This document shows, piece after piece, positions 15,583-62,503 of a stretch of DNA of 64,000 bases; positions within the stretch are counted from its first letter, which is position 1, and every line of letters begins with the position of its first letter. The translations under genes and the position numbers were made by a program. The notes under the pieces were generated by a model that had not been told where the DNA came from, ran no database searches, and was given only the letters and a program-made list of their open reading frames with translations. This DNA is from Dictyophora rubrovolvata (taxonomy: Eukaryota; Basidiomycota; Agaricomycetes; Phallales; Phallaceae): NCBI GenBank assembly GCA_029959195.1, contig CP114124.1, positions 2,303,102 through 2,367,101 of the forward strand. The letters run 5' to 3'.

Positions 15583-15960
15583 GACTAGAGTACAACTGCC
15601 TCAGCCCGTTCCATTTACTATGGGCCCATGGACAAATCCTTCTCACGATTCATCAATTGTGTTTCAACCAGAACGCTTATCCCTTGACGTTAGATTTATG
15701 TTCTTGGTAAGACAGACTCCTTTTATCTACGCCCCAGCTGTAGTCCACGGGCCCGTAACGAAGATGAGAGGACAATCCGACTTGCCGTAATTCCCGGAGT
15801 GTAACTCGGAACACTGAGCCGGATTTCTTTTCTAACTCGAGGGATGTTACTGTGGTGAGTACTATTTTCTCCGGTGAATTCTCTCTTTTTATTCGACAAA
15901 ATATCTTCACAAACCAGGAATTGGACATGCTTTGGACGCTGGTTTATGTGCCTAATTTGT
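15583..15960 (+). pseudogene. Decayed 3' fragment of secreted alpha/beta-hydrolase
   Basis: This stretch aligns with the last third of the intact hydrolase immediately downstream. It shares SSIVFQPERLSLDV against SPIVFQLDVLTLDV, then FLVRQTPFIYAPAV against FLTKQIPFVYTPAV, then GPVTKM.GQ.DL against GPVTEMVGQFDL. The intron donor (GTGAGTA after a TTACTGTG block) and GIGHALDAG against GTGHALNAE are shared as well. A stop follows the QSDLP block, and frame changes occur between the remaining pieces. The 5' two thirds, including the nucleophile exon, are missing. The fragment lies in the same orientation about 240 bases before the live gene's start, so it is the upstream member of an old tandem duplication. 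Confidence 0.85.
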
Positions 15961-19776: not shown

Positions 19777-21374
19777 GAAAGGCGGTCTTTGAGATACACC
19801 GTTATTCGTTATTTACAGTGTGAACGTTCCAACTCAACTTATCTCATAGAACTCTTTTCACATGAGTGCCTATCATAACCAATAGAATTACTTCAATGTC
19901 GCGGATCTAAAAAGTCCTCTTCGTGGGTGTTCTCTCGTCTTAAATTAGAACATATGACTTGGGATCCGACAAGAACCAGACACGCACGTCAACAATAATC
20001 TCGATCTAGCTGTTTTAGCTTTGGTACCCACGCCCCCTTTTCAGCCGTCAAAAATTAATGGCCCCTCTGTTCTCAATCATGTTGCAGGTTTTTAGAACAT
20101 GTATAGTCCGTCAAGCCAATATTAGTTCTAGTTTTTGATGTAAACCGAGAATATTGCAGTGTGGTGGGACCATTTCTTCTCGCTGGAAGGAATGCGAGCA
20201 TGTATATCGACAATAAATAATATTCCCTTTATGATTTTTTCGGAACTAAACCATGTCATTTGTGGGCTCTTCAGCTTAAATCCCCTCTAGCTTTTCCGAT
20301 AGGCGTCATTTTTCACAAAAGGGCGCCGGGGCCACCGATCAGAGGAATAATGTCCACTGCGCTTTTTGGGGCGGGTTTTCTTATTGATTTATGACTGAGG
20401 TGCATCGTTTGCTTCTTTGATCAAGACTCCCTGCAATCTGATTCTAATTCCCGACTGTTTTAATGTTAATTTTAGTTTGATTATGAAAAAGACTGCCAAC
20501 ACACAGTACGAGAGCTTGTGTCATTTCCTGAAGTTTTTTTATAGCCAAGCCAAGACAGACAGTAAAGCAATGTTCAATTGATCCACTCGGACCATGGCAA
20601 ACCAGGAGAAAAATAACCCAGAGGCCGAAGCTTTTGCGACGTGTCCCGTTACCCAACCCATTCCGGCACGTTTATTTACTTGCGATATCCATTAAAGGCA
20701 CCATTTAGCCACCCAATTAGTTCTGCCCCCTTTTAACTGTCTCTCCCGAAACCATTTTCTCGCCCTCGGGACTGAAATTGTTTTATATGAATGCTCCAAG
20801 TCTCAGCAGTTCGTTACTTTCAAATTGCGCAAATTTGCGCGAGATAGCGCAGTATCATCTAGAAGCCACGTGTGGTACTTTGAAGCGTCCATACTCCCTG
20901 GGTGACACAAGCTCTGGAAACCACGTCCGATTCATCCAGAAGACATGATGTAACTTTCTACAGAAAGACATGCTCAATGTTCGTTCGTTGCTGTTGGGGC
21001 TCTAGATGTTTCTATTGCGTGCTTGCCTTCAAATTTCAATGTAGAAACGTGTAATGCCCTCTTCTATCTTAACCCACGCACATGGATATCGTTCTTCCAA
21101 GACATAACTAGCATTGTTCTGCGGAAATATTGATTGAGCAAGACATCGAAATCAAAACGGACGTATATGGCCTACCAAATATGAAAGTTTGAACTTTGAA
21201 GAAATACGTATACATTACAAATCAGAAACCTCTTAGACACAAAACCATATGGCTGAATGGTACTAGTCGCGTTTTTCAGTGTCTCGTCAAGTCCCAGTGC
21301 TTGAGTCTGGGTTGGAATATTTGATATACTTATGTAACATTCCCAGGCCATTGGTAACTTGCAGTGTCAACAAA
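19777..21374. other. Divergent intergenic region, ADH and DUS3
   Basis: About 1.6 kb between two start codons. The 70-codon frame at 20444-20656 (-) has a secretory-looking hydrophobic start but no further support. No repeats or RNA genes seen. Confidence 0.45.
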
Positions 21375-34456: not shown

Positions 34457-35728
34457 ATGTCTACGCAGAGGTACTTCGACCTATCAGATGGCGCGAAACT
34501 TGCCTATGATATTTATGAGGAGGAGCATCTAAATAACAAAGAGACCAAAACCCGTCCACTTGTCCTTTTCGGCGGTGTTGCTAGTACCAAAGATGATTGG
34601 GCGCGATTACTACCCCATCTTAGTAAAACACGAACTGGTATATTTGTTTGTTTGGTCTTTGTCACACATTGAATAGCTGACGAATTAATCGTCATTTGTA
34701 TCAGTTTTGACGTTTGATTATAGGTTCTCAATTAATTGTTATTATCCAGTTTCAAGTTATGAGTCTAACACATTTTAGAGGAATCGGGTTATCTACATTT
34801 TCTACTCCTGAGAAAGCTGATAAATTCGATATTGAATCATTAGCCCGGGACGCGGTTGCTCTCATCGAGAGTTTTAAATGGCCAGAAGTCGATATCGTAG
34901 CGCTTTCTATGGGTGGTATGTTTGATCAAAAATAGACTTCAACTTCTCTAAATCCAAAGTAGGCACAGTCCTGCAACAGATGTTACTTTCTCATGTGCAT
35001 CCTACTGCTCCTTCCCAATTGCCTTTTCGCATTCGCCATGCAGTTCTTTCCGCAACCTTTGCATCCCCCATTCCTCCGGAGTATCACCCGAAACCTCTTC
35101 CCAAGGCGACTGGAGTCGGCAATAGCTCAGGCACGGGGCCTGAGGATCCTGTCCGGCCGCTCCTTGAAGCTTCTTTAGGACCTAAATGGATCGCCGCACC
35201 GGAAAATCAGGAAAGGTTCAAGGTGTGGCTAGAGAATTCTCTTAAGAATAGGTATGTTTTAGAAATGCATCCTCATGTTACTTGTGTATAATCAAGAAAC
35301 GAAATATTAGACCCTTCCCGACCGTGAGTGAGTATTCTTTATCTTTATCTTTTCTTGGTTTTAAATGACCCTGGAAATTATTCACCAGTGAGACAGCGCA
35401 AAATGGTAAGTTATCTTCTCGATCACCTAAGAATTATTGTGCACGCACGATCTAACGAATTCTATCCTTTCAGATCGCTAAATTCTCTTTTGTTGACAAC
35501 CTGGCGGCCATTGAGTTAAACACAGAAGTCCTCGTGATTCATGGGGTGGACGATGTTGTTGTTCCGTTTTGTATGGCGGAAGAAATTCTTCGGGCATGCC
35601 CACAGGCGCGACTTGTATCTATAGGCTCCAAGCGAGGTCAGGTTCCTAGTTATTCATTTGGACATCTCTGGTACGAGTACTTTGATGTGGATGTTTGGGT
35701 TGGAGTTCTGGACGTCTTCTGCGGGTGA
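34457..35728 (+). CDS. Alpha/beta-hydrolase, paralogue B
   Basis: This is the second copy of the three-member hydrolase family. Seven exons (34457-34637, 34705-34723, 34779-34915, 34963-35251, 35311-35327, 35389-35405, 35474-35728) give 304 residues. Three exons are only 17-19 bases long, yet each keeps the frame and rebuilds the family sequence (VLTFDYRGIGLST; PTVMRQRKMIAKFSF). The N-terminus is STQRYFDLSDGAKLAYDI. The nucleophile elbow reads VALSMGG: the first Gly of GxSxG is Ala here, unlike GYSMGG and GISMGG in the paralogues. The Asp region is VLVIHGVDDVVVPF and the His is in FGHLWYEYFD. No signal peptide, so probably cytosolic. An activity cannot be named; the Gly-to-Ala change is tolerated in some alpha/beta-hydrolases. 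Confidence 0.88.
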
Positions 35729-38748: not shown

Positions 38749-39532
38749 TCAAATGTGGGATAAATATTGTGGTTTTGAGTCGTGAACGACTTTCTCACTG
38801 TCTATTTTATTTTCAGCAACAATCTTTCGCAAACTACACCGAAGTTCCTCAGTAGTCCGTAACATATTTTTAGCCACTGATACATACTGGGTATCCACCA
38901 TTGCAAGTCTGATTTGAAGATCCCTGGAAGACTCGGAAATTCTAATGCAAGGAATATTGAAACGTTCAATCATTCGCTGCATTCTATGAGAATATCTTTC
39001 CGGTTCCTCCAAAGATCTCACTCCATCATCATACACCCATTCTTTCACAAAAGGTAGCAGAACTTAGAGTCGTGTAAGTGGCAGAAAACTGGGTAACAAT
39101 AATTTTATCTTTCTCACCAAATAGAGAACTCCTATAGAACTGAATAGCTTGCTGCAATCCTTCGGATAACAATAATCTTCTCTCCATGACTGCAGCAGCC
39201 TCTGTCTCCTCCATTCCCGCGTAAACAATCGGATCCAGCGCCGATCTATCACTCAGAAATAAGATAGGCGACTCTTCTGTCACATCCCTATCCGCATTTT
39301 CTCGTGCCATCCTCTCTGCATTGAGCTGCCCGTCCAAGATCGCTTTCTGCATATCGAACGTCCCAACATCCTTCCTGCTAAATCCTTGTGTTCTCATGAC
39401 CGTACGCGCAACTTCTTTAATGTGACGAGAAGCAGGAATTCTATAATGATGTGCGAGCGCATCGCATGTCGTCGTTTTACCGCTGGACGAAGGCCCAACT
39501 ACAAAGACAGCTCTAGGCCTGTATGTCTTCAT
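38749..39532 (-). CDS. P-loop ATPase / nucleotide kinase-like (AAA_28 type)
   Basis: This is a small P-loop NTP-binding protein resembling the ATPase half of NadR-like kinases. The start is the ATG at 39532; the TTG two codons upstream is not used in fungi. Exons 39532-39118 and 39062-38749, joined by a 55-base intron, give 242 residues. Walker A is VVGPSSSGKTTTCDALA near the N-terminus. An acidic strand ILFLSDRSALDPIVYAG may bind Mg. The splice restores LFGVLLPFVKEWVYDDGVRS, which links a hydrophobic strand to the conserved DDGVR motif. The end is hydrophilic. It is divergently arranged with the polymerase-helicase gene, only 213 bases between start codons. Substrate is unknown. Confidence 0.82.
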
Positions 39533-39745
39533 ATCCAATGACGGTGTTGTCTGTCGACGAACCTGAGAGAAAATAAAAACAGGGACTAGTCTATTCTCAG
39601 TTGTTCAAACTCTAAACTTAAATTCGAGTCACACTCAAGCGCTGCGGCACCACGAAGCTTCTGAGCACGAGATGATAAGCCCTTGGTGGTACTATTTATT
39701 TTCCGCGTCTCCATTGTTCCCAGTTCTTCCTCGGCTTTCAACACC
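39533..39745. promoter_or_regulatory. Compact bidirectional promoter
   Basis: Only 213 bases separate the start codon of the P-loop gene (-) from that of the RdRP-helicase gene (+). Both promoters and 5' leaders must lie or overlap here, so the two genes are likely co-expressed. No TATA box is evident. Confidence 0.55.
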
Positions 39746-42700
39746 ATGACAGTCGTCCTCAGAGAAAACCCGGATCCAAACGATGATGCCTGGAGCTTTA
39801 CAAACGTTGCTATTCCCACCTCTAAGACCACCTCTCAGAATCGTCAAATGGGGAAGATGATCTCATTCAAAAACACCGGAATTACTCTGCAACTCATTGC
39901 GTTTCCCAAGAATCGGATCTTACATGGCGATGATCCATCAAAATTCATCCTAACCACATTTGGTGATTTCAGATTTCCTGACTCCGGACTTTCCGTTACG
40001 AGGGATTATATGATCAACCTATTCAAAGCTGGATTGACTCTCAATGGCAAACAATATCGGTTTTATGGACATAGTAATTCTCAATTGGTGAATATCTGCA
40101 CTTCTCATTGAACGACTGAAGTAACTCTGGAATGCGTTTCCAGAGGGGACGAAGCTGCTTCCTAAGGGAAGCGCAAAACGATCAGGAAATTGATACACGG
40201 ATCTCACGCCTCGGCGATTTTGACAATATTAAGAATGCCGCCAAAAGTAAGTGTCATATCCACTCTACATATATTCACTCTATAATGATGAAGGTGCTCG
40301 ACCATTCTTAATTAATAGAGGCCAAACGCATCGGGTTATTATTTTCAGAAGCTTCCATTGACTGGACTCTTGACCCAAAACATACGAAAGACATTCCGGA
40401 TATCACCATGAACGGGCAGCTCTTTTCGGACGGGTGTGGACTAATTTCGCGAAAACAAGCCATGCTTTTGGCAAAACACAAGCAAATTCGATTTCATGGA
40501 AAGAACTATACACCTACTGTCTATCAGATTCGGTATGAATCTGTTTCGTTCACTGGATCTATCCACTGACATTTTTCGTAGATATAAAGGATATAAGGTG
40601 GAGAATATACGCGGCGTCATTGCTTGCGCTAATATAATTCATCTCAGTTGCGTCCTAATGCTGCATCCAGATCTCGATGCTCGACGCGAGGCACTGGTAG
40701 CCTTTCGTACTAGCCAGAAAAAGTTTACAGCAACGGGTGATAACATCTTCTCCGTCGTCGAATCCTCCGTTCCATATGCCTATGGTCGCCTTAATGACGA
40801 CATCGTGGTTCTTTTAGCAAGCCTGGGCGTCACAACAGAGCAATTTCAACGCAAACAACAGCAATATTTCGACTGGATCGCGAGATCATCTGTGGAGTGG
40901 GAGGTCGCCTTCGATTTTTTATGCAGTCTTCGCAATTTTGATCTGGCGGAACGCGTTTTATTGGACGGTCTGGACAACGACAAAGTCCAGAAGAACATTC
41001 AAGCCCTCCAAAATTCGGAGATCGCATCATTCAAAAAGAAGGATCACTATCGCACGAGGACAATCATTCACAAATCTAGGCTCCTCTTTGGAGTTTGCGA
41101 TCCCTATCAAGTTCTTAAAGAAGGCGAAGTGCACGTGCGGATCATGGAGCCACGGAAAGGAGCCACGACCCTTACGAACATTGACGTTTTAGTCGTCAGA
41201 AATCCTTGTCTTAACCCTGGAGACTGTCTTAAGCTTCGAGCAGTCTCTCATCCAAAATTGGCTCATTTAGTCGATTGCGTTGTCTTTCCAACCGTGGGTC
41301 GACGGGCAGCACCGTCCATGAGTTCTGGTGGCGACCTTGGTATTTCATCCCGTATCTACTATTCAACTTAGTCTCATCAACTGATAGATGGTGACAAATA
41401 CTTTGTCATGTTCGATCCTGATATCATGCCTCCTAAAGTAGCGGAGGTATGATCCTGTCTATTGTTGGCGTCAAGCTGTTCTTTATTGATTATATGCATG
41501 TTCAAAGTCTTATACATACCCCGAAGGTAAACCGCCTCCTCCGAAAAATGTAGCACGAGAAGATCTAGCTCGTCACTTTGCATCATACAATGCGTATGTC
41601 TTGTTCTTCATCAATTAGCTACTATGTCATCATTGAATTTTACTAGGTCTGATCTCGCGAGAGTCTCCGCCTTACACAGAAAATGGGTCATCGCTAGTCC
41701 AGACGGTGCAATGAGTGCTGAATGTCAAGAACTGAACGCACTCCATTCCCTCTCCGTAGATGGCGGACGAATCAACATTCCAGACAGGTTGAAAAACCCT
41801 CCCAAACTCGATGGCAAAGGATACGTTCTTAACGTTCTCGCCGAAGCAGCACAAGAGTTTGCAGAGCGCTTCTTGGAAGTTAGAAAATCCACCATTCGTG
41901 AAATTGCGCAAAAAGATGCCCATAATATCCTATCGCAGTTTCTATCCACTGAAAGGCTTGGGGTGACAGAGTACGAACTCGCCTGCTCAGGCTTTAATTT
42001 GGCACAACGAAACGGCCTTAATCCACGCAATTACCTGTCTCATATCGATCTCGGGGCGTTGTCAATTTCCGAAAAGTATGCTCTTATTGTCCAGCTGGGC
42101 CTTTCTCCGGAGGAACAAGTATTGATTTGGAATAGGTGTATATCATCTCTCCTCTTTTTATGTTCTGGTCTAATTGTCTATGATCCAGCTTAGTCCGTTC
42201 AGATATCATCCAGCCTAGAGAATTGAATGACCGTAACCTAAATCAACCTCTTCGGTTTCAACGTCTTTACACTTCACGTATTCAAGGACGAGCCGCGTTC
42301 TTCGAGTATTTAACACAGGCTATGGAGGATTTCACACGGAAATTAATCATAATGAAGGTAATGCTTCTATACTCATTACAATTTGATCTCAATGTCGAGG
42401 GCCCAATAGACAGATGATCGATTTGCGGCGGGAATATTTGTTAAGGGAAGACTCAACGTGAATGAAGACGTTAGTTAATTCGCAGGGAAAGTTATGCATA
42501 TGCTGACACTTCCCCTTAACCAGGATGACATCGATGAAAACGTTGCCGTCTGTTCTTTTATGGCCAAAGCAGGCGGTGCTCCAACAACATACCGCCGAGG
42601 AACAAAAGGCTATAAAATTCACTTTGGAGAAAATATTTTCGAAGTTTTCAATCGCCAGCGTGCAGATACGTTTGTCTTTGCTACAAGATCTCCTCCAAGG

Positions 42701-45700
42701 ACTGGTGCCGACGTTGTGACTAGTATTGCTTTGCAAAAGATATCTGACAATATACGAAGGGTAGTGTATATTTAAGTTATGTTATCATTAACGTATTCTC
42801 ACCCGGCTCTCTCAAAGCAATTGGGACGACTTAACCGCACACCTGTCGTTGACATGGAAATTCACGTTATCTCCAATCGAGATCGAGTGGCTCACCAAGC
42901 CTTTGATCTACGTTTTGAACAGTGAAGCGACTTTTTTTTCGGTGTCACGGGCGTACTAAGTATTGATGTATTTTCACTCAGTGTTGAAACTACAGAATTC
43001 CTCAGACGGTTCGACCACAAACCCGTTCCATATACTCCAAACACGTTGAATTCGGTGGACTGGTCAAATTACCCTGCAACGCAAAAACAAATCTTCACGA
43101 CACCGAAAGAAATTGCTCAGACGCACATCGAACTGCTGGAGCTGAATGTACTCGAGGAACTTATGAACTTTGCCTATGAACGACGCGCTGAGGAGCAACT
43201 ATTCTGGTTATTCGAAAACCTATTAGAGCGAGATCACTCGAGAATTGCGACACACATTAGTCGGCATCCACCGCTGTCCTATGTGGTCCTGAAACGGCAT
43301 TTAGTGGAAGACAGCACTCTGCCTCCTTCATTAACTGGACTTGCATATATCCTTCTCCGAGGAGTCGTACGGTCCGCAAATGAATTGAAAATGGCGTCGT
43401 TGGTAGCCTTGGAAAAGATGGCTCAACAGATCAGAGATCTCGACTTTAGGCAGTATTCCGAACTACTTTGGTTGGCCTGTCTTTCTGTTCGACCTCGACA
43501 GCTAGTCCAAGAAGTGTTACTTGTATTACATGAATGTCGTCAAAATTCTGGAGAATCGGCTTTGATGAGATATGCTCACAAAGAAGCGTTGGCCATCGTT
43601 TTTGATCACGTCGAGGAAGCTGCAGATGAATGTCCAACGGATGATCAGGGAAGACCGACAAGACAAAAAACGGCCCCTGTGCGAGCGAAGCTTGTTCCAC
43701 CAAAAAAGAAGGACAATGCTGACACAGAAGAACCAAAATCACTTGTCCAGGACGACATTGTTTGTGCTCATATTCGAGTGGATGCACTTTCATCCATTAG
43801 AATACACTCGCACATTCGTCTACAAGTTGCTTCACCTGCAGAACACTCGGTCATACCACGTGCTGTCATCGACGGTATAGTAACGCATGCGGGAAAAGGG
43901 GAAATTATGCTGCAGGTTATGCATCCTCTGCCTCCCGAGTTCATGATTATGGATTGGAATATCTACACAGCCGGGAGTATTGCTACATCTCGAGCTATGC
44001 TGGACGCCGTTTTACGTCTTGTTGAAGAAAGAGGAGAATGCTGCAGTTTTTATAAGGTTATCACTGGTAGCCAAGGATCAGAACCGGCGGAAGAGGACCA
44101 ACCTCCGGAAAGTGTTGACGTTGAATCCCTATCAGCGGAGTACGTAGTAAAAGACACTCTAAACTCAAGTCAACGTCATGCCATCAACGTTGCCCTAGCC
44201 CAAAGGGATGGCATGACTTTGATTTGGGGACCTCCTGGTGAACCTGGAGAACGGAACCTTGTCATTTTTTTTGTCAACTGATTTTTCCTTTTCAGGTACT
44301 GGAAAAACTACGGTGATTGTGCAGATTTTGCAAATTTTCGTTCGTCAAGTACTGGAAGAAAACCACGAAGATAGCCCCCCCCGACGAATCTTGATGACAG
44401 CGTCGACTCATAACGGTATGAAACGAGTAATATTATACATATTATACCCGCTACTCACATTACAATTAAAATAGCCGTAGACAACGTTCTGGAAAGATTT
44501 CTAGCTGAAAATGAAGTGTCGAAGCTACTACGTACTGAACAAATTCTTCGAGTTGCGACTGACATCTCGAGAGTCAGCAAAGCGCACCAGAAGTATACCA
44601 TAGATGCACGAGTAGGAGGGATTGTAAACGAGGATTCACGGTTGCTACGGCAGGCAGAGAAAAGATTGAAAGAAGCCAGGCTCATCTTTACCACTTGTGC
44701 AGGAGCAGGACTCGGAATCATGCGAAAACTTGACTTTCCGATTGTATTGATTGACGAGGCATCGCAGATCACAGAACCTACTGCCCTGATATCTCTGGTC
44801 AAAGGCTGCCAACGAGCAGTACTAGTCGGAGATCAGTAAGTTGATTATTTTCTTCGATTCCAGGGACTGATGTTGATTACGTTTTGTGTTCAGTGTTCAG
44901 CTGCGCCCCACCGTCAAACCTATGGGCGCGATTCTACAATATGATATCTCGCTTTTAGAGAGGTTATACGCGGGGCCTCCGAATTCTAAAATTTCCCGTA
45001 CAATGTTAGAAGTATGTCTTTGCTCTGGCGTTGTTTGTATCATACACCTTCTAACATAGGTCTCGTATTACAGATTCAATATCGCTTTTCTGATGCTATA
45101 GGAAATTTCCCTTCCTCGCAGTTCTACGAAGGTCGCTTACGTTCTGGTCTGGTTGACAGGGGCTCAGATCCACGACTGACGGCATCGGTGTTTCCATGGC
45201 CTATAAACCCTGCGACCGGAAGTATAGTGCCAACAATTTTTGTTTCGTGTGCTGCTGAAGAAGACTATGGGAGATCCTCGAAAAGCAACGGTGGACAGGT
45301 GAAGATGGTGAAGGAGATCGTTTCTGTTCTTAGGACGGAACGCCAAGGATTGCCTGATGCTACTACAGCCACAGAAGTAGGATCAACATCCATTGCCATC
45401 CTTACGCCCTACTCTCGACAGGTAGCTCAGCTAAAGGCGGAAAATATACAAGATGTGATAATAAGCACGATTGATGGGTTTCAAGGGCGAGAGAGCGACA
45501 TTGTCATCTTCTCGACTGTCCGGTGTAACGCAGAAGGTGATATTGGCTTTGTCGAGGACGCGAGGCGACTGAATGTTGCGTGGACAAGGCCAAAGCTTGC
45601 CTTGATCATTGTGGGAGATCGCAGGACGTTGGGAACAAACAGTCCGCTTTGGGCACGAGCTATTCAATCGTGTGCATTGGTAGAAATTTCTTTGCCTCCC

Positions 45701-45715
45701 GAACCTGATAAATGA
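39746..45715 (+). CDS. RNA-dependent RNA polymerase fused to UPF1-like SF1 helicase
   Basis: Sixteen exons form one frame of 1,705 residues: 39746-40087, 40144-40246, 40319-40532, 40582-41339, 41388-41446, 41508-41593, 41647-42135, 42189-42357, 42410-42469, 42524-42760, 42818-42921, 42982-44237, 44296-44415, 44475-44835, 44894-45011, 45074-45715. Residues about 60-530 are a cellular QDE-1/RDR-type RdRP: YGHSNSQLRGRSCFLREA, LGDFDNIKNAAK, QLFSDGCGLIS, then the catalytic SGGDLDGDKYFVMFD (Asp 471, 473, 475), split by an intron inside DLDGD. Residues about 680-1270 are a linker and helical region. Residues 1280-1705 are the helicase: Walker A GPPGTGKTT, ASTHNAVDNV, Walker B LIDEASQ, GDHVQLRPT, LEIQYRF, DGFQGRESDIVIFSTVR and RLNVAWTRPK. 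The protein should copy and unwind RNA in silencing. The RdRP lacks the N-terminal extension of Neurospora QDE-1. Bases 40603-40653 are read through in frame, though a polymerase intron might be expected there. Confidence 0.93.
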
Positions 45716-45987: not shown

Positions 45988-46272
45988 TACAGCGTGGGCT
46001 TGACACTGAGCCAAAGCTGGTCTTTGATTGTTCTAATTTCCGATTTCGGTTTTATATTTACACTACAACTCCCAATGTCGAGTAATAATAGGGAGAACCA
46101 ATCACCTTCAAATCCTTCCTCTGGATCCAATTCCTCTGGGGTACACACCTATGACACGGTAAGTCTCTCATCATGCATATTAACACAGGGTCATCCAACA
46201 ATGGAACCGCTGCTCGGTCGATTGCATCCTCCTTCGGTGAAGGCTCTTTCGAGAACGTTGAGGACCACGTCT
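45988..46272 (+). repeat. Inverted repeat, left arm
   Basis: This is an imperfect match, in reverse orientation, to 46858-47158. It covers the leader, the start of the small Ser/Asn/Gly-rich gene, its intron and part of exon 2. Shared blocks include TACAGCGTGGGC, GGGAGAACCAATC and GGTCGATTGCATCCTCCTTC. Confidence 0.8.
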
Positions 46273-46301: not shown

Positions 46302-46783
46302 AACTATCTTTTGGGGTTGCATTCTTTTGTTTCCATGGTTCAGGCGTGTCGATGGCTTTTTGGATGGGTATCCCCTGCAGTTTGGTTTTACTTCCTAATT
46401 CTTTTATGTTACGTCTGTCTTGGCTTGGCTTGATTACGAAAAACTTAACACGCACGGGCTTTCGTACCGTGTGTCGGTTTTTTTCATAATTAGGTTAAAA
46501 TGAACATTCGAAACAATCAAGAGAGTTAGAATTAAATTAGACGCGGTATACATAAAGCAAGCTATCGATACAGTTAAACCATACAAGGAAAAAAGAAAAT
46601 CAACCCAAAACGCGGTAGTACGATCTGCTCATCACTGTGCGAGCTTCCGCCTCAATTTTTTTTTTTTGGTGGTCGGGAGTCATGACCAACGGCCAGGGAA
46701 GTCACGACTTGAAGCGGGAGATAGCACGAGTAACACGCGTTAGTCAAAAGGCAAACAAAAACGCGGCTTTTCTCCTAACCTAA

Positions 46784-47067
46784 TCATCTGTTTTGGGGCA
46801 GTTGTGCCAGCACCTGCCGTGGTGGCGGACGCTGGTTGCTGGAACCAGACCGAGCTCTCGTGGTCCCAACGTTCTCCTGAGAGCTTCCACCGAAGGAGGA
46901 TGCAATCGACCGAGCCGCCGTTCCATTGTTGGTTGAACCTGTGCGTTAGACGGATGAGGAGAGACTTGAAAAAGAACGAAGGTGGTAGGTGTGTATGATC
47001 TACCTTTGCCAGAGGAATTGGAGCCCGAGGAAGTATTTGAAGGCGATTGGTTCTCCCTACTCGACAT
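46784..47067 (-). CDS. Small Ser/Asn/Gly-rich protein, 72 residues
   Basis: No family recognised. ATG at 47067 in the frame MSSRENQSPSNTSSGSNSS. Exons 47067-47004 and 46938-46784 with a 65-base intron (branch CTAAC) give 72 residues. Exon 2 encodes STNNGTAARSIASSFGGSS and ends RQVLAQLPQNR-stop. The whole product is low-complexity, probably disordered and basic at the end. It forms the right arm of an inverted repeat with the copy at 46075. Coding use rests on the clean intron and the shared start, so it is moderately supported. Confidence 0.45.
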
Positions 47068-47158
47068 CGGGCGTAAACTAGTGTTGTAGAGTAAATATGA
47101 AATCGAAATCGAGGATTAAAACAGTCAAAGACCAGCTTTGGTTCAGGCCCACGCTGTA
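46858..47158 (-). repeat. Inverted repeat, right arm
   Basis: Reverse-orientation partner of 45988-46272, with about 585 bases between arms. A transcript across both arms could fold into a long imperfect hairpin. Confidence 0.8.
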
Positions 47159-50332: not shown

Positions 50333-53300
50333 ATGGCTACAATTCAAGACAGAACATTTAGTCATACTTACTCTGGTTTGAAGAATCAGTTTGCAGTGGC
50401 TGGTGTTTTGGCTGCAGCATGCTTGACAGGCTACGAACTCATGCGAAGACGGCGGAGAGGTCCTGGTCGATCTTCAAAGTATGGGGGAGAGCTGGGGAGT
50501 GTCGAGACCTGGGAATTTGGATAGTATGTTCGCCATCCGTGCTCTGTTTCTGCGTATCCAAGTGAACGATCACCTTCAGTCTATTCCAGGGCCGATGTTG
50601 GGCACAGTAAAAGAAATCTCTCAGCATTTTCTGCCTTAAGCCTGTCTCATTATATCATACAGATTTCCATCACCAGCACTGCCTAAACTTCCTCTACAAT
50701 GGATCACTCAAGCCATATCTTACCCAGAATCCAATTTACCCAACCTTATAGGTGTGGACGCTTCGACCTACATCCGCTTTATACAAGGTTGCAGTAAGTC
50801 ATTTGTACTCTTTTATTTCCCTTCTCTCTCATAAACAATGAACGCATCGTCTACCCAGGGCTTTTTGTATTATTACACACTTTAACCACTTTCCCCATCC
50901 TCTTCACAATTCATCTCGTCTTCTCTCCACCCAACATACCCATAAGCTCCATGGACAAAGCTTCCGTATCCTCATTGGTACCATCAGAACAACATCTGCT
51001 CTACATTCATGTCATTCTAGCTTATTGGATTGCCATAACCTGGCTTCTAAATCTTCTTTGGCTAGCTCGTGACACATTCCGTTTTCGCGCACAAGCCACC
51101 CAGGCCCTACGCGAGAAATACTCCACACATACACAGCTTACAACATCCCCACCACCTCTCAACGACCAAGAAGACGACGAAAAATTATTAGCCAGTCGCG
51201 GAATACGTCTCCGCACAGTAATGGTAACAAACATACCCGTCCCATTACGCAATGAAACGGATCTCAAAGAGTATTTCGAGTACTACCTCTCTCGCCATCT
51301 AGCTAATCCTCCAATCGCTTTCGGATTTTTCGCAAGAGTCGCATCAGTCTTATTCCAGCGCATTACGACTTCCTCTACCATAAAGCGTTTCAGAGCTATC
51401 CCTGATGACGCTGCTCCACTTCAACATGAGCCAAAGGCAGATGACGATCATCAAAACGCCGCATCGCATCACTCTTTTTCTCCACTCGTAGAACGCGTGG
51501 TTATCGCTAGAAAAATGACGGAACTGGCATCGTTACTCGAAAGACACGATACTGTCCTTAAAGAACTCGAGTATGCGCATATACGTCTAGCCCAACACGT
51601 TCTTCAGGCAGTCAGAGACGGTCTGGATACGGACAACCAAGAGCACGAGCCAACCAAAGAAGACAAGGAATTATACTCCAATCTTTCTCCATTCGTAAAG
51701 CAATTTCGTGTCCCGTCGTCATCGCCACAGCCTGTTAATTCCATTCTGACGTACTTTAAGCATGCGAGACAGTTTTTACGCAAACTCAAGCTTCAAAAGC
51801 GCAAAGAGGACGAAGATATCTCAGACGATCTCATGTCCGAAGCACTGGGAAAGACCTCAACAAACCATATCCATGGTACAATATGGGAAGCCCTGCACAG
51901 CCTTCCTCGATCATATTTGGATCCATATCAACCTCTCATCCGTCTCAATAAACTCTTCCTTGGAAAATCCGTCCCAGAGATAGATTATTACAATGGAAGA
52001 CTGACCTATCTCACTTCTCTAATCCACGACGACAAATCCCGCCCAATCGAAGATTACCAGCCTACTTCTACCGCGTTCGTCACGTTCTCTAAAATCGAAG
52101 ACGCAAGACGGGCCACTAAATTCTTGCAAACTCATCCACGTAATCCGTTGGCTTGTTTGGTTGTACCCGCTCCTGATGTGAGAGACCTTGATTGGGCTAG
52201 GATTATGAAGAGCTCGTTCACCGGTGAAGTATGTTCTGCGTCACATTGTTATGTTTCCCCAAAGTAGTAACGTCCGTTATTTTTTTTTCTTTTAGTTTAT
52301 TAAGGATTGGGTTATTGAAGCGGGGGTTTGGTGAGTCTTTGCGTAAAATGTCGCTTTTTCTTATCATTCTGAAAGGACGGTTTCCCAGGGCATTCACGCT
52401 CTCTTGGATAATACCTGTATGTCTCGTTTTTCAGGACTACTCTCCGCTCACGTGTCTCTAGATTTCACTACTCATTGGTCTAGTGAACATCCAAAATTTG
52501 AGCGTAGTCATACCCGGTCTAGTTTGTACCCCAGCTATGTACACTGACATTATAGACTGAACCAACCCCACTAGCAAAACTACTTCAACAAACACCCAAA
52601 CGACAAAGAAGCAATATCCTCTTTACTCCCTACAATAATATTCTCCCTTCTCACCATTCTAATACCTGTTCTGCTCTTCCTGATAGGCAAAAAGGGCCAC
52701 ACGATTGTCACCTCCAGCAAACTTCACGATACTATCATGACTCGATATTGGAAATTTCTCGTCTGCAATTTATTGATATTTTTCTGCGTCGGCGTTGGCG
52801 CTCTTGAATCGTTTTTACAATTTTTCAAGCATACTGTGGATATTATTCCTGTTATTGCCAGTAGTTTTCCCATTGCTGGTCCTTTCTATGTCGGGTAAGT
52901 TGTTTTGAGTCTTTGAAAGAGAGAAGCTTCTTTGTTGATTCAACGTTTCTAGATGGTGTATGTAATGGCTCTGTATTATTCTTCTCGCGCAAAACCTGAT
53001 TTATTTATTTTTTTCAAGTAATCCTTCAAACCGCCATTCACGGATTTCTCGAACTCGGTCTCTGTAAGTCTACAACTTAGCCTTTTATAACGCAAATATA
53101 ATTAACAATCCTCCCTCAGTCGGTGTGCGTACTAGGAAAAGAAAACATTTCATACTGCACTCACCTATAATCACAGCTTCCCCTCATCGTATACCCATCT
53201 ACCAAGGTCTCAAATACGCTTCGAAGAAGAGCCGAAGGCATCCGTCCCCGTACTTTCAATTACTATTGCAAGTCACTCTCATTCTTTGATTTTCGCGGGG

Positions 53301-55313
53301 CTCACTGTTTCTATTTGATAACAGATTGGCTTCCCAATCATTTATTAGTAGCCACCATCGTCCTTCTTTTCTCGTTACTCAATCCACTCGTGATACCCTT
53401 TGCATTAGTGTATTTTTGTGTCGAATCAGGTGTGTGTATATATGCCCTGGTTTCTTTACTTTTGAGACTTACCGAGGTCTTGTCTTGGATTAGTTATTGT
53501 AAAACATCAGGTGTGCACAGCGCGTTCGCCCCACAAAAACAAACACCCGTTTTACCTATTTATCTCTCCAGCTCTTACACGTTTATGCACGATCTTACGA
53601 AAATAATGGTAAAATATTGTTAATCCGTACGATACGATTTTCGCTAGATGGTTTAATCCTTGCGCATGTATGTCAATTTTTACGTTTCTAGTATATATTT
53701 TTGACTGAGCATGCCTAAGGTCGTTTTTCTCGCATTTTTGGTCGTGTTGAAAGAAACTCCCGAAGCAGCCTTTATTGGTATTCTATTGGTGCTCACTGTA
53801 TTTACGAAACTTGGGTACGTACACCGACTACGCGAGTAAATGGTAAGGTTGGCTAATTTTATGCAATCCCAGTGTTACACGAATTTGTCGTGCAAAGTTT
53901 GTTGAAGGAGATAAAGCCGAAGAAGACATTTTCAATGATAACAGCCGTAACGCCAACCTCTCGGAAAATGCCCCACCACAGAATTCTTCCAAAGAGGTAG
54001 AGACATTGTCGTCCATGGGACAACCCGGTGACGAGGCAAATGAACATAAGGCTATTGACCCATCCAATAAAACGAATACACTGGAACTGGGCCAATTCAT
54101 GACATGGAAAGAGCTTCCGAGGGGCGTTCAACTCAATTATGCATCCTACCCTCCCCGTCGGCAGTTCAATATCCACAGGCCTGTTAACCCGTTCCAACCT
54201 CAACGGCAATCTCCTGAGAAGAAAAACGTTTTGTCTGATAACGAGGGTAGTAAGCAACCTCTAACTGCAGAGCCTCAAGCTGATCCAATGTCGACATCAT
54301 CACTATCAGCACCTTTATCCAGCCAGAACGACCGACAACGGTCTACTAGCCATTCTTTAATCGTCACACCCCATCCCTCTTTTCCCCGCTGGGATGATTC
54401 TCCCGACCTGGATCAGCCATATGATAATCCCTTTTATCGTACTCCGGTGGACAACGTTTTATGGCTGCCGTGCAATCCGTTTGGCACCCTAGATCTGGAT
54501 GATACAGTCGATTTACACATCCCGCTTACGAGTTCCGGCAACCCGGACAAATTAAATCGTTGGTTAGAAGAAGTAGAAGAAGAAGAAGAGAAAGGAGAAG
54601 GTGGTAGCAGAGGCCATGGTCGGCTCACGGACTCTCCACGAATGTCACCAAATACACCACTGGGCGGCGGTGACGGCGAAGATGAACTCAAGAGACCTCC
54701 GCTCCGTGCCGGTTCCAGTCGAGCGAGAAGTAGTACTAGCAAATTCAGGCCGCAGCGACAATATACGGGAATGGAGAATATTTCAATGTCCTCAGTCCTA
54801 GTTGCACGTGCTAACGCGCTCAACGAAAAGGAGAATAATAGAGCGTTAGCGGTGGTGAAAGGTAATAATAGCAAACAGAAGTTGATCAACGGCCGGGAAT
54901 TACAGAATATTTTGTCGACGGAAAGTACTATTGCTGCTTCTAGCCGTTCACTGAACCCGAGACTACGTTCTTGGACTCATGATCCTGTACTTGAACCTGA
55001 CTTGCATGCCGAAAATGCTCTGTTGAGGGAATCGTTCCATTTGGTATCGCCGTCATCGACAGCGGGCTTAGCGGATGGAACGAGAGAACACGACCAAAAC
55101 ACAGGGAACTCGATATCGCTCGGTGAGGCTGTGCTAGGCGAGGTTGTGGCAGAAGAGCAGCAGTATGCTGCACAAAGGGTTCAGCGCGAGGTTAATGAGA
55201 AACGGACGTGGGAGAGGCTGTATAAACTACCTTCGTGGTGGAAGTGGTTTTTCTGGCGTAGTGGCGGTGGGTATGATCATGATCTAGGTCGAGAGACGGC
55301 GTCGATGGTTTGA
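50333..55313 (+). CDS. CSC1: CSC1/OSCA-like osmosensitive cation channel (DUF221)
   Basis: This is a multi-pass membrane channel of the CSC1/OSCA/TMEM63 family, mechanically or osmotically gated and permeable to calcium. Start at 50333 (MATIQDRTFSHTYSGLKNQF) with a first membrane helix VAGVLAAACLTGY. Short exons rebuild YLFQGRCWAQFPSPALPKLP and LIGVDASTYIRFIQGC, the N-terminal block. Two helices follow (LLHTLTTFPILFTIHL; HVILAYWIAITWLLNLLWL). The large cytosolic domain contains RTVMVTNIPVPLRNETDLKE and ends AFVTFSKIEDARRATKFLQ. Then comes the 7-helix pore region (IKDWVIEAGVWAFTLSWIIP, IIFSLLTILIPVLLFLIG, VCNLLIFFCVGVGALESFL, LLVATIVLLFSLLNPLVIPF). The C-terminal tail from about 53880 is long, polar and Ser-rich and ends in an aromatic WWKWFFW patch. 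Introns near 52930-53830 are dense, and I did not fix every border. Confidence 0.9.
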
Positions 55314-55532: not shown

Positions 55533-56807
55533 TCATAGCCGGGCCTCAACGACAATGGATTCGTCGTCCAAAAACGACTCCAGTACTCCAACCCAGACTT
55601 TCACATCAAAGTATTCATACCATAAATGTCCAAAGGCATAACTAGGCACTTGACCTTGTCTGGAACCTATAGATACTAGTCGCGATTGAGGACATACACG
55701 GAGAATCTCTTCTGCCATACAAAACGGAATAACAATGTCGTCTATTCCGTGAATCACTAGAATCCGAGTGCTCGGTTCGATGAACCGCAGATCATCAACG
55801 AAAGAGAACTGAGTGATCTGAAAATGAAGTTCATCAAATCGTCTCCTAGGAGAATATTCCGGCTTTGATTACATACCATTTTGCGCTGTTTGACTGACGA
55901 CAATAGTTCGAAGATTATGTTGAATAAGATGTAGAAGGACTTACTTATAGTCAGGAACGGTCTAGCTTTAGGTTTAATCGTAATTGTAAGGGATGGGGGC
56001 AATTTTAAACAGACCTATTGACGATAGAATTATTCAACCACACGCCAAACCTTTCTTGGTTCTCCGGTAAAGCAACCCATTTAGGTCCTAATGAAGCTTC
56101 AAGAAAGGGACGTACGAGTTCTTTCTTCTGCTCGTCCGTTAGCATTTGACCGACCCTCTTAAGGAGAACGGGGGGTTCTTGGGGTGCCAGGGGAGATGCA
56201 AATGTGGCACTCAGGATGGCTCGACGCACACGGAAAGGTAATTCCCTGGGAGCAGTAGGGTGTCTGTGGAAAAGTAATAGTTGCTGTAAAAGAACGCCTA
56301 GTGTTGGGCAGGTATAGCAATATGTTTTAACGTGATCTCAATCGACCCACCGCCCATAGATATCCCAAGGATATCAACTTGCTGCCACCCAAAGCTTTGA
56401 ATGAGAGCAGCTACATCCCACGCCATTGATTCAACGCTAAGCTCATCATCATTTGCCGGATTAGAATACGTCGATAGCCCAATTCCTCTGGGAAATACAT
56501 TAATTACATTGAGGCTGATAAAAAATGACAAAAATACGAACCTGTGATCAAACGTTAAAACTCATATGGAATTGCAATGTTTGGATGGCATCAAAACAAA
56601 TGAAAGGGGGAAAGTCTTACTAGCTCGCGTTTTGCTGAGATCGGGTAACAATCGTTTCCAATCGACTTTGGTTGTACTGACACCTCCAATTAGAACGAAT
56701 GGTATAGCTCCTTTTTTGTTGAGATGGTTTTCTCCGTGTAGGTCATAAGCGAGCTTCGCTCCATCTGGCAAAGTGAAGTATTTCTGGGCGTCGTTTATTG
56801 GTCCCAT
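55533..56807 (-). CDS. Alpha/beta-hydrolase, paralogue C
   Basis: This is the third member of the hydrolase family, about 20 kb from the other two. Start at 56807 (MGPINDAQKYFTLPDGAKLA). Blocks in order are PFVLIGGVSTTKVDWKRLL, DHRGIGLSTYSNP, the nucleophile elbow DILGISMGG, an intron with a regular TAG acceptor, GVLLQQLLLFHRHPTAP, AILSATFASPLAPQ, LGPKWVALPENQERF, VKQRKMITQFSFVDDLRF, VIHGIDDIVIPFCMAEEILR (Asp) and FGHLWYEYFDVKVWVGVLES (His). A complete Ser-Asp-His triad and regular introns make this the best-preserved copy. It has higher identity to paralogue B than to A over the Asp-His region. Cytosolic; substrate unknown. Confidence 0.9.
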
Positions 56808-59656: not shown

Positions 59657-62503
59657 ATGTCGGGAACAGAAAAAAAATCACGTGTTCTTGGTTTTGGTTT
59701 ATCAAATCCAGACAAGCAGCGGGAGGGGGGAGGAGGAGGAGGAAGAATGGAAAAAAACAGAGATGATTCGGTGGAAATACAAGACAGATCGTATTCATCG
59801 TCGTACGAAGAAGATTCACAGGCGAATCGACACAACCAATCGAGATGCGAGCCGGAAAATAAGCGACAAAGGAAAAAGGAGTTTGAGGAAGACCATGAGA
59901 ACAGCGCACCAAGTGTGCAGGCAGCAATGTCAGAGGAAAGCAGTAGTAAGTACTAACTATTCAATGGTGTGCGCCCTTATTCACACACACTAGAGTTTTC
60001 CCTTACTTGCGTTCAAACTCTGCTGTAACGTTTTCGCCGACTTTAGAACAAAGTAGTAGTCCGCATCGTACCTATCCTTACCAACAACAGCAACAGCAGC
60101 ACTCTGGCAACTCTGAAGGTACTTGTTTCTGTTACGACTTATGCGACGGGTTCATGAATTAAAGTTATTTTCTTTTCGTCTTTCGAAATTTTTTTCAGGG
60201 GTGGCGCGAACATTCGCCGCCAAGGGTCGCGCTGTGAACGAGGTGGAACTCGGATCTTCGTACTCCCACTATCCTACCTCTGACACGCGAACAGAAGAGG
60301 GCGAAGCCAGTTATGAAACCAATTCACTTACCGGTCCAGGCCTCAGTAATAGGGGGTCTTCAGCTAGAGGACGTATATGGGAAACAGAAACCTACGATGA
60401 TGGCCGGAAAGGTCAAAACCGGGTGGGAGGCAATCTGGACTTCGACTTCATGCATCCATCATCCACACTCGTCTCCACATCTACATCCATATCGCCAGCC
60501 TCGTTCGTGCAAGGAAAAGGGAAAGAACATGTCTATCAGAGTTCATCACCTAAAAGAACGAGTCGCTCGGCTGAGCTATCTGTACCCATTTCCCAAGCCC
60601 GAGAAGGCAAAGAAGACTCTTATTCATCGACGTCCGCTATCGCTACCCTTCATCGCAGTCGAGAAGACGGTTCAATCGCAGGTGCATCGACATCTTCAAA
60701 TCCTTCTAATACCCTTCCTTCTATTTCACGTGTCGAAGGGAATTCTTCCACGCCCTCCGTACCTCGTGCGAGGAACAAATCCGTCTCGGGTTCGTCATCT
60801 GCTTCAGTAGTAACACCTGTTTCTATGTTCGTTGATTCTCTTTCCTTGTTTTTTTTTCTTTTTTCTTTCTGTTTTTTTTTTTCGTCTGCAATCCCGTTAC
60901 TCGGCCAGAGAAAACGTTCATCCTTTCACTCACTTTCTCCCGTAGGTATCGTGTGCCTCAAAATCAGTATTCGTCTGAGCCATTCATGAAAAGATCACCA
61001 AGCCCTTCAAATATTTCAGGCGATTATCGTGAGTCCAGACAAAAGCAGTCTTGGGTCGGAGCTACTGGCTCTACCACTGCCATGTCTTCAAACACCCGCG
61101 ATTCTTATCGACGAGATGAAGCTTCACGAGTGAGAACACCAGATAGAATGGGCCCATCCGGTGCTGACGATTCAATTCAACAAAGCCGCTCTCACGTATC
61201 CCGCTCACCGGACAGATCCTATTTTCAGAACGCTCCAGCGAGATCGGGTAACAGCAGTACCAACGCTACCTTACTAGGCACAGTGGCGTATCAGCGTCAA
61301 CAGGAAGTAGTTAAAGAACCTAGCCACCATTATTCCGAAACACCTTTATATTCATCAGATCATCTCAATTACAGAACTCAATCACCATTGCCACCGACAT
61401 ACGCCCGCCCTCGTTCTAGGGGCGCCGATAGGGTCGGGACATATCCATCACTAACAGGGCTTGCGAATTTTGAAAGGCAACAATTAACGAGAAGCAAGCA
61501 AAATGCTCAAGAAAGTCGTTCACTTGGAAGGTCCACCTCTAGTACGCCCCCAAGTTCCGAGAACAGAGACACACTTAGACAACGGCCATATACCGAATAT
61601 CAAAGACCGGAACCTTCCCGACAAGATGATAGCAGAAGGCTGTCCGTACAGGAGCAAGATAGGCATGAGAATATTATGGTAAACAACCGACTCCCCATCC
61701 GTCACACGTTTTGATTAATCCTAGCAGACAGAATCTACACACAGCTCGTCGGCAGGACGGTTTGGAGTTTTGAAGGGTGCTCATCGGACTTCCCTGGATC
61801 TTAATACAAATCCACCTTCAAAAGCTACATCCTCTTATTCAACGCCATCGACAACGTCTATATCTTTATCACCCGTGCTATCGAAATCACTGCCTTCTTT
61901 ACGGGAGACACTTGCCTCTCCGACAATGACATCTGAGCCTTTGCCTCAATCTCGTGGGACCGGCGCAGGGTCCTCTTCAGTGCGCCCGCCGCGAACAGTG
62001 TCAATTCCACCTGCTCAAACCATGTCGCGATCGGCCCCTGGAGGCCCTTGGCTATATGACGGCGAGGAACCTGATTTGGAAGAAGATGAGGGCTTTGGGG
62101 TAGCAGACGAAGGCGGACGGCCGAAGAAGAGACGACGAACTAGAGTTGCCTTGAGCTGCGCAGGTCAGTGGAATCCATTAAAAAAATTTTTTTTTGGTGG
62201 TCTCAAAAATGTTTTAGAGTGTAAACGGAGAAAGATTAAATGTGATAGGGCTCAACCATGTACGCCTTGTGCTCGCCGTGGGGATCAAAGTAATTGTAAA
62301 TGGGCGGTGATGGAAACAAAGTAAGAATTGTAATTGCTTTTCGGTTCTTATCGATGACCGAGCTTGGTCCGTGACCGTCTTTCTTATCCAGAGACGGCGC
62401 ACCCACAAGAGCTGAATTTGAGGCCTTACAAAGTCGAGTTATACATTTAGAACGGCTTCTTTATTCCGTCGCACCTCAGTTGAAACAAGGCCCTCAAAAC
62501 TAA
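59657..62503 (+). CDS. Zn2Cys6 transcription factor, C-terminal zinc cluster
   Basis: This is a fungal binuclear zinc-cluster DNA-binding regulator. Start at 59657 (MSGTEKKSRVLGFGLSNPDK). Exons begin near 59657, 60048, 60201, 60957 and 61730, with the last two covering the zinc cluster and the C-terminus; splices join SSK|QSSSPHRTYPYQQQQQQHS, GVARTFAAK and MYRVPQNQYSSE in frame. Most of the protein (about 700 residues) is Ser/Thr/Pro/Arg-rich and probably disordered, with a poly-Gln run near residue 110. Next is an acidic patch (GEEPDLEEDEGFGVADE), a basic stretch (RPKKRRRTRVALSC) and the six-cysteine cluster: CAECKRRKIKCDRAQPC then CARRGDQSNC. An intron splits the cluster after its first Cys. 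A short coiled-coil (EFEALQSRVIHLERLLYSVA) follows, and the protein ends QGPQN. No fungal-specific middle homology domain is seen. Confidence 0.9.

What the first reader, a model, noticed from the sequence alone, without database searches (positions are those of the whole stretch)
39746..45715. RNA-dependent RNA polymerase and UPF1-like helicase in one polypeptide
All fifteen introns can be placed so that 5,118 coding bases form one frame with no stop. The polymerase keeps the SGGDLDGD catalytic site and the helicase keeps Walker A (GPPGTGKTT), Walker B (DEAS), QYR and the DGFQGRE and RLNVAWTR motifs. In Neurospora and plants the silencing RdRP and its helicase (QDE-3, SDE3) are separate genes, so a fusion would couple RNA copying to unwinding or RNP remodelling. 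I believe similar architectures occur in Agaricomycete proteomes but cannot verify that here, and I know of no biochemical account. The linker of several hundred residues (about 540-1270) is conserved-looking yet matches no domain I know.
Basis: partly seen in the sequence, partly recalled or inferred. Interest (0 to 1): 0.9.

Follow-up and report, generated by a model that had tools for sequence, protein, structure and literature searches.

The report
Fungal RNA-copying polymerase fused to helicase
A fungal gene appears to encode one long protein that joins an RNA-copying enzyme of the gene-silencing type to an RNA-unwinding motor; a protein of the same build has already been described in the mould Fusarium graminearum.

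Summary
Sixteen exons at 39746-45715 (+) join into 5,118 coding bases and 1,705 residues without an internal stop. The product carries a cellular RdRP domain (PF05183, E 7e-96, aa 84-566) and an SF1 helicase of the UPF1/SEN1/IGHMBP2 kind (AAA_11 E 1e-44, AAA_12 E 2.3e-42). Catalytic motifs of both halves are present. The bridging exons 8-11 score best in the predicted frame. No transcript was available.

Two points change. First, the architecture is published: Fusarium graminearum Fgrdrp5 has an RdRP domain plus DEXDc at aa 1277-1478 and PF13087 at 1475-1677 (PMC11237814, passages), within 11 residues of the positions here; its deletion lowers exonic siRNAs and ascospore discharge. Second, an IGHMBP2 profile reaches back to about aa 1169, leaving about aa 567-1168 unassigned.

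The polymerase is nearer to plant RDR1/2 than to QDE-1 and lacks some 360 N-terminal residues of RDR1. Better comparators than QDE-3 are S. pombe RDRC (RdRP + Hrr1) and Neurospora SAD-1/SAD-3. Most likely it makes dsRNA for siRNAs, with a motor that remodels or feeds the template (inferred). New member of a known kind.

The parts
39746..45715 (+). whole gene, 16 exons, 1,705-aa RdRP-helicase fusion
   Evidence: frame, splice sites; codon score; domains
39746..40087 (+). exon 1, aa 1-114; start codon
   Evidence: the open stretch begins at 39665; codon score about zero
40144..40246 (+). exon 2, aa 115-148
40319..40532 (+). exon 3, aa 149-219; motif SDGCGLIS at 40426-40449
   Evidence: PF05183 E 6.6e-13 on the ORF alone
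40582..41339 (+). exon 4, aa 220-472; bulk of the polymerase domain, first part of SGGDLDGD
   Evidence: PF05183 E 1e-44 on the ORF alone
41388..41446 (+). exon 5, aa 473-492; completes DLDGD across intron 4
41508..41593 (+). exon 6, aa 493-520
   Evidence: the one exon whose frame is not best of six
41647..42135 (+). exon 7, aa 521-683; end of PF05183 (aa 566 = base 41782) and start of the unassigned region
42189..42357 (+). exon 8, bridging
   Evidence: predicted frame best of six
42410..42469 (+). exon 9, bridging
   Evidence: predicted frame best of six
42524..42760 (+). exon 10, bridging
   Evidence: predicted frame best of six
42818..42921 (+). exon 11, bridging
   Evidence: predicted frame best of six
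42982..44237 (+). exon 12, aa 874-1292: unassigned stretch (helix-rich in a low-confidence model), a basic stretch KLVPPKKK at 43688-43711, then the helicase from about aa 1169 up to the first part of Walker A
44296..44415 (+). exon 13, rest of Walker A; first part of motif Ia
44475..44835 (+). exon 14, aa 1333-1452; Walker B DEAS
   Evidence: AAA_11 E 8.7e-21 on the ORF alone
44894..45011 (+). exon 15; GDHVQLRP completed across intron 14
45074..45715 (+). exon 16, aa 1493-1705 and stop; AAA_12 with the DGFQGRE and RLNVAWTR motifs
   Evidence: AAA_12 E 1.1e-41 on the ORF alone

Best explanation
The gene makes one 1,705-residue protein of the fungal RNA-silencing machinery: a cellular RdRP of the RDR1/2-like type joined through about 600 unassigned residues to an SF1 helicase of the UPF1/SEN1/IGHMBP2 kind. 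Shown here: one frame, both domains, catalytic motifs kept. Known from a protein of the same build (Fgrdrp5): loss lowers antisense exonic siRNAs. Inferred: the polymerase copies selected transcripts into dsRNA for Dicer, and the motor acts in cis on the same RNA. Helicases of this group walk 5' to 3' on RNA (general knowledge, not tested), so the motor would run toward the template's 3' end, where an RdRP starts, stripping proteins and structure and delivering that end to the polymerase; alternatively it would follow on the nascent strand. In effect it would be the polymerase and helicase subunits of an RDRC-like complex in one chain.
For: One frame with 15 GT..AG introns; predicted frame best of the three forward frames in 16 of 16 exons; the 2.4-kb bridge needs 5 introns against 12-20 in the 39 of 60 shuffles that have a path. 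PF05183 E 7e-96; AAA_11 1e-44; AAA_12 2.3e-42. PDB relatives: RDR1/RDR2 140-154 bits; UPF1/NAM7 about 150, a chain named 5'-3' RNA helicase-like protein 143-147, SEN1 124-130, IGHMBP2 (SMUBP-2) 127. TIGR00376 E 1.1e-77 on the helicase part, 262 bits, below its cut-off of 349. No AATAAA between 39.6 and 46.2 kb, hence none in the bridge, but none after the gene either. Same order of domains at nearly the same residues in Fgrdrp5, whose deletion lowered the share of antisense exonic sRNAs from 27.3% to 18.91% and 5'-U 21-25-nt reads by about 32% (PMC11237814, passages). Separate-protein precedents: an RdRP with Hrr1 in RDRC, and SAD-3 in meiotic silencing (PMC3759863, passages); ZNFX-1 co-precipitating with EGO-1 (PMC9276528, passages).
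Against: No transcript, protein or fungal relative's sequence seen. The intron test does not discriminate for 42.1-43.1 kb alone. The polymerase half is first aligned at aa 89 opposite RDR1 residue 451, so some 360 N-terminal residues of RDR1 have no counterpart; activity without them is not assured. The stretch VDGGRINIP stands against VDFAKTGAP in RDR1, and after QIRYKGYK there is extra sequence (alignments). Fgrdrp5 loss has the smallest siRNA effect of the three RdRPs sequenced there, and its authors also raise rRNA processing and NMD links. ZNFX1 scores 87 bits, less than UPF1, so the helicase may not be the Hrr1/ZNFX1 orthologue. Direction of the motor is not tested.
Confidence: 0.7

Rival explanations
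1. Two neighbouring genes: a short RdRP gene ending near 42 kb and a separate UPF1-like helicase gene starting in exons 10-12, wrongly joined.
For: In-frame ATGs exist in the bridge (for example aa 773, 852, 935); retaining intron 7 would end the polymerase ORF at 42193; the minimal-intron test is not decisive for 42.1-43.1 kb alone.
Against: No in-frame stop in any exon, predicted frame best of six in exons 8-11, little room for an intergenic region, and a published protein with the same order and nearly the same positions.
Confidence: 0.05
2. A fused protein whose polymerase half is degenerate, acting mainly as an RNA helicase (for example in RNA decay or ribosome biogenesis).
For: Missing N-terminal part, altered VDGGRINIP stretch and extra sequence after QIRYKGYK; in the Fgrdrp5 deletion ribosome biogenesis was enriched among changed genes.
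Against: SGGDLDGD and the other polymerase motifs searched for are kept and PF05183 scores 323 bits against a cut-off of 23.8; Fgrdrp5 deletion lowers antisense exonic siRNAs.
Confidence: 0.15
3. The helicase half is the RDRC-type Hrr1/SAD-3/ZNFX1 helicase itself, captured by the polymerase, so that the fusion replaced a separate partner gene.
For: Hrr1, SAD-3 and ZNFX-1 work with RdRPs or in RdRP pathways.
Against: By score the helicase is nearer to UPF1, SEN1 and IGHMBP2 than to human ZNFX1; no zinc-finger or ZNFX1 family is among the 25 Pfam families listed for the protein or matched on aa 490-1264.
Confidence: 0.2

Closest known systems
Fgrdrp5 of Fusarium graminearum (PMC11237814)
   Same: PF05183 polymerase plus C-terminal DEXDc (aa 1277-1478) and PF13087/AAA_12 (aa 1475-1677); here the helicase core aligns from aa 1266 to 1688 and AAA_12 lies at 1469-1675
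   Different: The paper names the helicase DEAD-like, whereas the motifs here are SF1 UPF1-like.
RDRC of S. pombe (RdRP, Hrr1, Cid12)
   Same: An RdRP working with a helicase in siRNA production (PMC3759863, passages)
   Different: Separate polypeptides and a third subunit; Hrr1 kinship of this helicase untested
Neurospora SAD-1 and SAD-3 (meiotic silencing)
   Same: RdRP and Hrr1-like helicase in one pathway
   Different: Separate genes
RDRs with N-terminal DEAD-box helicase (Dictyostelium, Phytophthora and related oomycetes, Hydra, Nematostella)
   Same: A helicase and a cellular RdRP in one chain (PMC4791657, passages)
   Different: SF2 DEAD-box helicase at the N terminus; here an SF1 helicase at the C terminus
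UPF1/NAM7, SEN1 and IGHMBP2 helicases
   Same: Helicase core, about 150, 124-130 and 127 bits
   Different: No UPF1 zinc-binding domain among the Pfam families listed; fused to an RdRP

Membership tests
Cellular RdRP (PF05183) | Significant PF05183 match | tested here: met
   322.6 bits against cut-off 23.8, aa 84-566
Cellular RdRP (PF05183) | DxDGD catalytic loop | tested here: met
   SGGDLDGD aa 468-475
Cellular RdRP (PF05183) | N-terminal part of canonical RDRs | tested here: not met
   PDB alignment starts at aa 89 opposite RDR1 residue 451 and the Pfam match at aa 83. PF05183 itself does not demand this part
Cellular RdRP (PF05183) | RNA synthesis | not testable with these tools
   needs purified protein
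SF1 UPF1-like helicase | AAA_11 and AAA_12 with the SF1 motifs (motif numbers recalled) | tested here: met
   alignments to UPF1/NAM7
UPF1 proper | N-terminal zinc-binding (CH) domain | tested here: not met
   not among the 25 Pfam families listed at E up to 1 on the whole protein
IGHMBP2 family (TIGR00376) | score above curated cut-off 348.9 bits | tested here: not met
   261.9 bits: relative, not member
ZNFX1/Hrr1 type | closest to ZNFX1 or Hrr1 in a tree | tested here: inconclusive
   ZNFX1 86.6 bits, below UPF1; Hrr1 sequence not available, no tree built
Fgrdrp5-type RdRP-helicase | PF05183 followed by helicase core and PF13087 in one chain, helicase starting near aa 1270 | tested here: met
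   against PMC11237814
Fgrdrp5-type RdRP-helicase | orthology by sequence | not testable with these tools
   Fgrdrp5 sequence not obtained; scans of viral contigs and genome contigs gave no relative of any kind
RDR with N-terminal DEAD-box helicase | SF2 helicase before the polymerase | tested here: not met
   SF1 helicase after the polymerase

The most novel reading that the evidence does not exclude
The protein is a one-chain, self-loading dsRNA machine kept across Dikarya: its SF1 motor runs 5' to 3' along a transcript to the 3' end and hands that end to the attached polymerase, so that template choice, RNP stripping and copying are one coupled reaction, which would explain how an RdRP lacking the usual N-terminal part selects templates.
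Probability: 0.2. Interest if true: 0.7.

Novelty: new member of a known kind. Interest (0 to 1): 0.4.

Why it matters
RdRP and helicase work together in small-RNA amplification in fission yeast and nematodes, and both are needed for meiotic silencing in Neurospora, but how the helicase helps is, as far as I know, unsettled. A natural fusion fixes stoichiometry and makes the question testable with one protein and two inactivating changes. In the passages I saw, the Fgrdrp5 paper labels its helicase DEAD-like and leaves its role for later work; the motifs here, with the shared PF13087, suggest that this class carries a UPF1-like SF1 motor, which points to different experiments (5'-3' translocation, RNP clearance).

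Tried and rejected
Paralogue in the window: tblastn with the product found only the gene itself and one chance-level match (E 0.67) at 16.5 kb. Relatives: the search for related loci in viral contigs with exon 12 (4 pattern matches, no relative), exon 4 (2, none) and exon 16 (no pattern match), and in genome contigs with exon 16 (59 pattern matches, no relative); these collections are viral and prokaryotic, so the blanks say little. Structure of exon 12 (418 aa, one sequence): mean pLDDT 35.3, pTM 0.23; no fold search was run on it because the model is not usable. Its helices over the first 215 residues are a hint only. PDB search of the linker: no match at E up to 10 for aa 568-880 or for exon 12 alone. 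Pfam on aa 490-1264 gave only the tail of RdRP (20.2 bits) and a chance-level DUF4230 (E 0.2). PHROGs: no match for exons 4 and 12, one family of unknown function for exon 16. Rfam at gathering scores and ARAGORN found nothing in the window. The idea that an unspliced intron explains the extra residues after QIRYKGYK was looked at by eye only; I found no removal that keeps the frame. Paper searches for the architecture gave no title about it; Fgrdrp5 was found by reading passages of a paper listed. Mushroom papers seen (passages) mention no such fusion: Sanghuangporus vaninii has four RdRPs of 807-1,198 aa with the RdRP domain, too short for this build; Ganoderma sinense has qde-1-like and sad-1-like genes, the word helicase does not occur; the Coprinopsis paper does not treat RdRPs.
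Full report
OBSERVATION. Exon 1 starts at ATG 39746 and exon 16 ends at the stop 45713-45715. Fifteen introns of 48-72 nt, each GT...AG, 10 of 15 not a multiple of three in length, leave 5,118 coding bases (stop included) and 1,705 residues without an internal stop. A codon score trained on the other exons of the model prefers the predicted frame among the three forward frames in 16 of 16 exons and among all six in 15 of 16; exon 6 is the exception (0.02 against 0.04), and exon 1 scores about zero.

IS THE JOIN REAL. The doubtful part is the bridge between the polymerase domain, which ends at aa 566 (base 41782), and the helicase core, which aligns to UPF1 from aa 1266 (base 44156). Allowing any GT..AG intron of 45-80 nt, the bridge can be read through with 5 introns; the reverse strand needs 11, and 60 dinucleotide shuffles need 12-20 where a path exists at all (39 of 60). 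Elsewhere in the window 154 tiles of the same length, both strands together, had a path (tiles without one were dropped before the count); their median was 13. The eight best (4-7 introns) start at 24.5-25.5 (-), 50.0-50.5 (+) and 59.5-60.5 kb (+), where long ORFs of the same strand lie. There the evidence is the codon score of exons 8-11, each best of six frames, and, most strongly, the published protein described below. No transcript evidence was available.

THE POLYMERASE HALF. PF05183 matches aa 84-566 with E 7e-96. By sequence the closest solved structures are plant-type RDR1 and RDR2 (140-154 bits; entries 7w84, 7w82, 7eu0 and 7roz, named RNA-dependent RNA polymerase and RNA-dependent RNA polymerase 2; 'RDR1, plant' for the first two is recalled); QDE-1 of Neurospora follows far behind (52-56 bits). 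The DLDGD loop corresponds to D1007, D1009 and D1011 of QDE-1, which lie in the second of its two double-psi barrels (PMC1750930, passages). Also present are SDGCGLIS, QIRYKGYK, NPCLNPGD and DCVVFP, which align with RDR1; their assignment to barrels is by analogy. The N terminus is short: aa 89 aligns with RDR1 residue 451 and the Pfam match starts at aa 83. The open stretch starts at 39665 and an ORF with an AAA_28 domain lies on the minus strand just upstream, so there is little room for more exons, though a distant one is not excluded. Relative to RDR1 there is extra sequence after QIRYKGYK and an altered stretch at VDGGRINIP (alignments); what these do to activity is unknown.

THE HELICASE HALF. 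AAA_11 and AAA_12 match with E 1e-44 and 2.3e-42. Among solved structures UPF1/NAM7 scores highest (about 150 bits), then a chain named 5'-3' RNA helicase-like protein (143-147), SEN1 (124-130), IGHMBP2/SMUBP-2 (127), DNA2 (100), ZNFX1 (87) and aquarius (39-47, the last a chain named pre-mRNA-splicing factor). With only aa 1089-1346 as query (one residue left out by a typing slip) the order changes: SMUBP-2 and SEN1 come before UPF1, so the exact subfamily is open. The NCBI IGHMBP2 profile gives 262 bits on the helicase part, below its cut-off of 349, and on the exon-12 protein it reaches back to residue 295, about aa 1169 (E 9.6e-05). So the helicase probably begins before the Q motif, inside exon 12, and the unassigned stretch is about aa 567-1168. 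No UPF1 zinc-binding, zinc-finger or ZNFX1 family is among the 25 Pfam families listed for the whole protein or matched on aa 490-1264. The PADLOC model MkoA also matches (240 bits; that it belongs to the bacterial Mokosh defence system is recalled), a sign of the same wide helicase family.

THE LINKER. Nothing significant in Pfam or in the PDB sequences matches aa 568-1168. A single-sequence model of exon 12 is unusable as a fold (mean pLDDT 35.3); it draws helices over its first 215 residues and few elements beyond. A lysine-rich stretch (KLVPPKKK, aa 1110-1117) resembles a nuclear localisation signal; that is my reading and was not tested. By length, the part after the DLDGD loop could include counterparts of the QDE-1 flap, neck and head; this is inference.

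WHAT IS KNOWN. Fgrdrp5 of Fusarium graminearum has the RdRP domain, a DEXDc domain at aa 1277-1478 and PF13087 at aa 1475-1677, and sits in its own branch of the tree of fungal RdRPs (PMC11237814, passages and outline). PF13087 is AAA_12; its limits differ from those in the window protein by 6 residues at the start and 2 at the end, some 1,475 residues into the chain. The authors deleted the gene: the share of antisense exonic small RNAs fell from 27.3% to 18.91%, 5'-U reads of 21-25 nt by about 32% (about 80% and 70% in the deletions of Fgrdrp2 and Fgrdrp1), and ascospore maturation and discharge were impaired. They call the helicase DEAD-like and leave its role open. An RDR with an N-terminal DEAD-box helicase is known from Dictyostelium, peronosporomycete oomycetes, Hydra and Nematostella (PMC4791657, passages). 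Separate helicases work with RdRPs in S. pombe (Hrr1) and act in the same pathway in Neurospora (SAD-3, homologous to Hrr1) (PMC3759863, passages); in C. elegans ZNFX-1 co-precipitates with EGO-1 (PMC9276528, passages). Agaricomycotina were found to carry 6.93 RdRP genes on average (PMC4290597, passages). Searches for the architecture in print were made; they cover an open-access library only.

MECHANISM. Shown: one frame, two enzyme domains with their motifs. Supported by the published protein of the same build: a part in making Dicer-dependent siRNAs. Inferred: the motor acts on the polymerase's own template. Helicases of this group move 5' to 3' (general knowledge), and a polymerase that reads from the 3' end would profit from a motor that travels to that end and clears it; the other option is that the motor sits on the nascent strand and separates product from template. 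The two options predict different behaviour of a helicase-dead protein, as given under next steps.

VERDICT. By sequence a real fusion gene, correctly read by the first stage, of a kind already described in an ascomycete. What is added here is the class of the helicase (SF1, UPF1/SEN1/IGHMBP2 kind), a shorter unassigned region, the RDR1/2-like rather than QDE-1-like polymerase, and the missing N-terminal part. The source organism is a fungus by its gene content (Zn2Cys6 and cerato-platanin domains) and short introns; phylum not tested.

Noticed in passing
45988-46269 and 46859-47158: Inverted duplication (75% identity over 313 aligned positions) starting 273 bases after the fusion gene's stop; as RNA the 1,151 bases 46000-47150 fold with -562 kcal/mol (no shuffles at this length). 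A read-through transcript would be a long hairpin, a possible Dicer substrate beside an RdRP gene.
   Followed up: partly
35163-35712 and 55579-56103: Inverted pair of about 550 bases, 69% identical: diverged paralogous genes or repeats.
   Followed up: no
15592-15785 and 17087-17276: Direct repeat of about 195 bases, 71% identical.
   Followed up: no
20435-20565 and 46409-46538: The spacer of the inverted duplication has a 73% identical inverted copy about 26 kb away, perhaps a dispersed element.
   Followed up: no
39029-39604, minus strand: Divergent ORF with an AAA_28 P-loop domain (E 7.2e-14); its first ATG (read by eye) lies only about 210 bases from the fusion gene's start: possible shared promoter.
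   Followed up: no
43766-45712 (fusion protein aa 1136-1705): The helicase part matches the PADLOC anti-phage model MkoA with 240 bits, so the same wide helicase family is found in bacterial defence.
   Followed up: no
50798-52267, 53847-55313 and 60117-62324: Long open stretches; the first matches PHM7_cyt and the ORF 61725-62324 a Zn2Cys6 domain, while those at 53847, 60117 and 60836 match no Pfam family at E up to 0.01.
   Followed up: no
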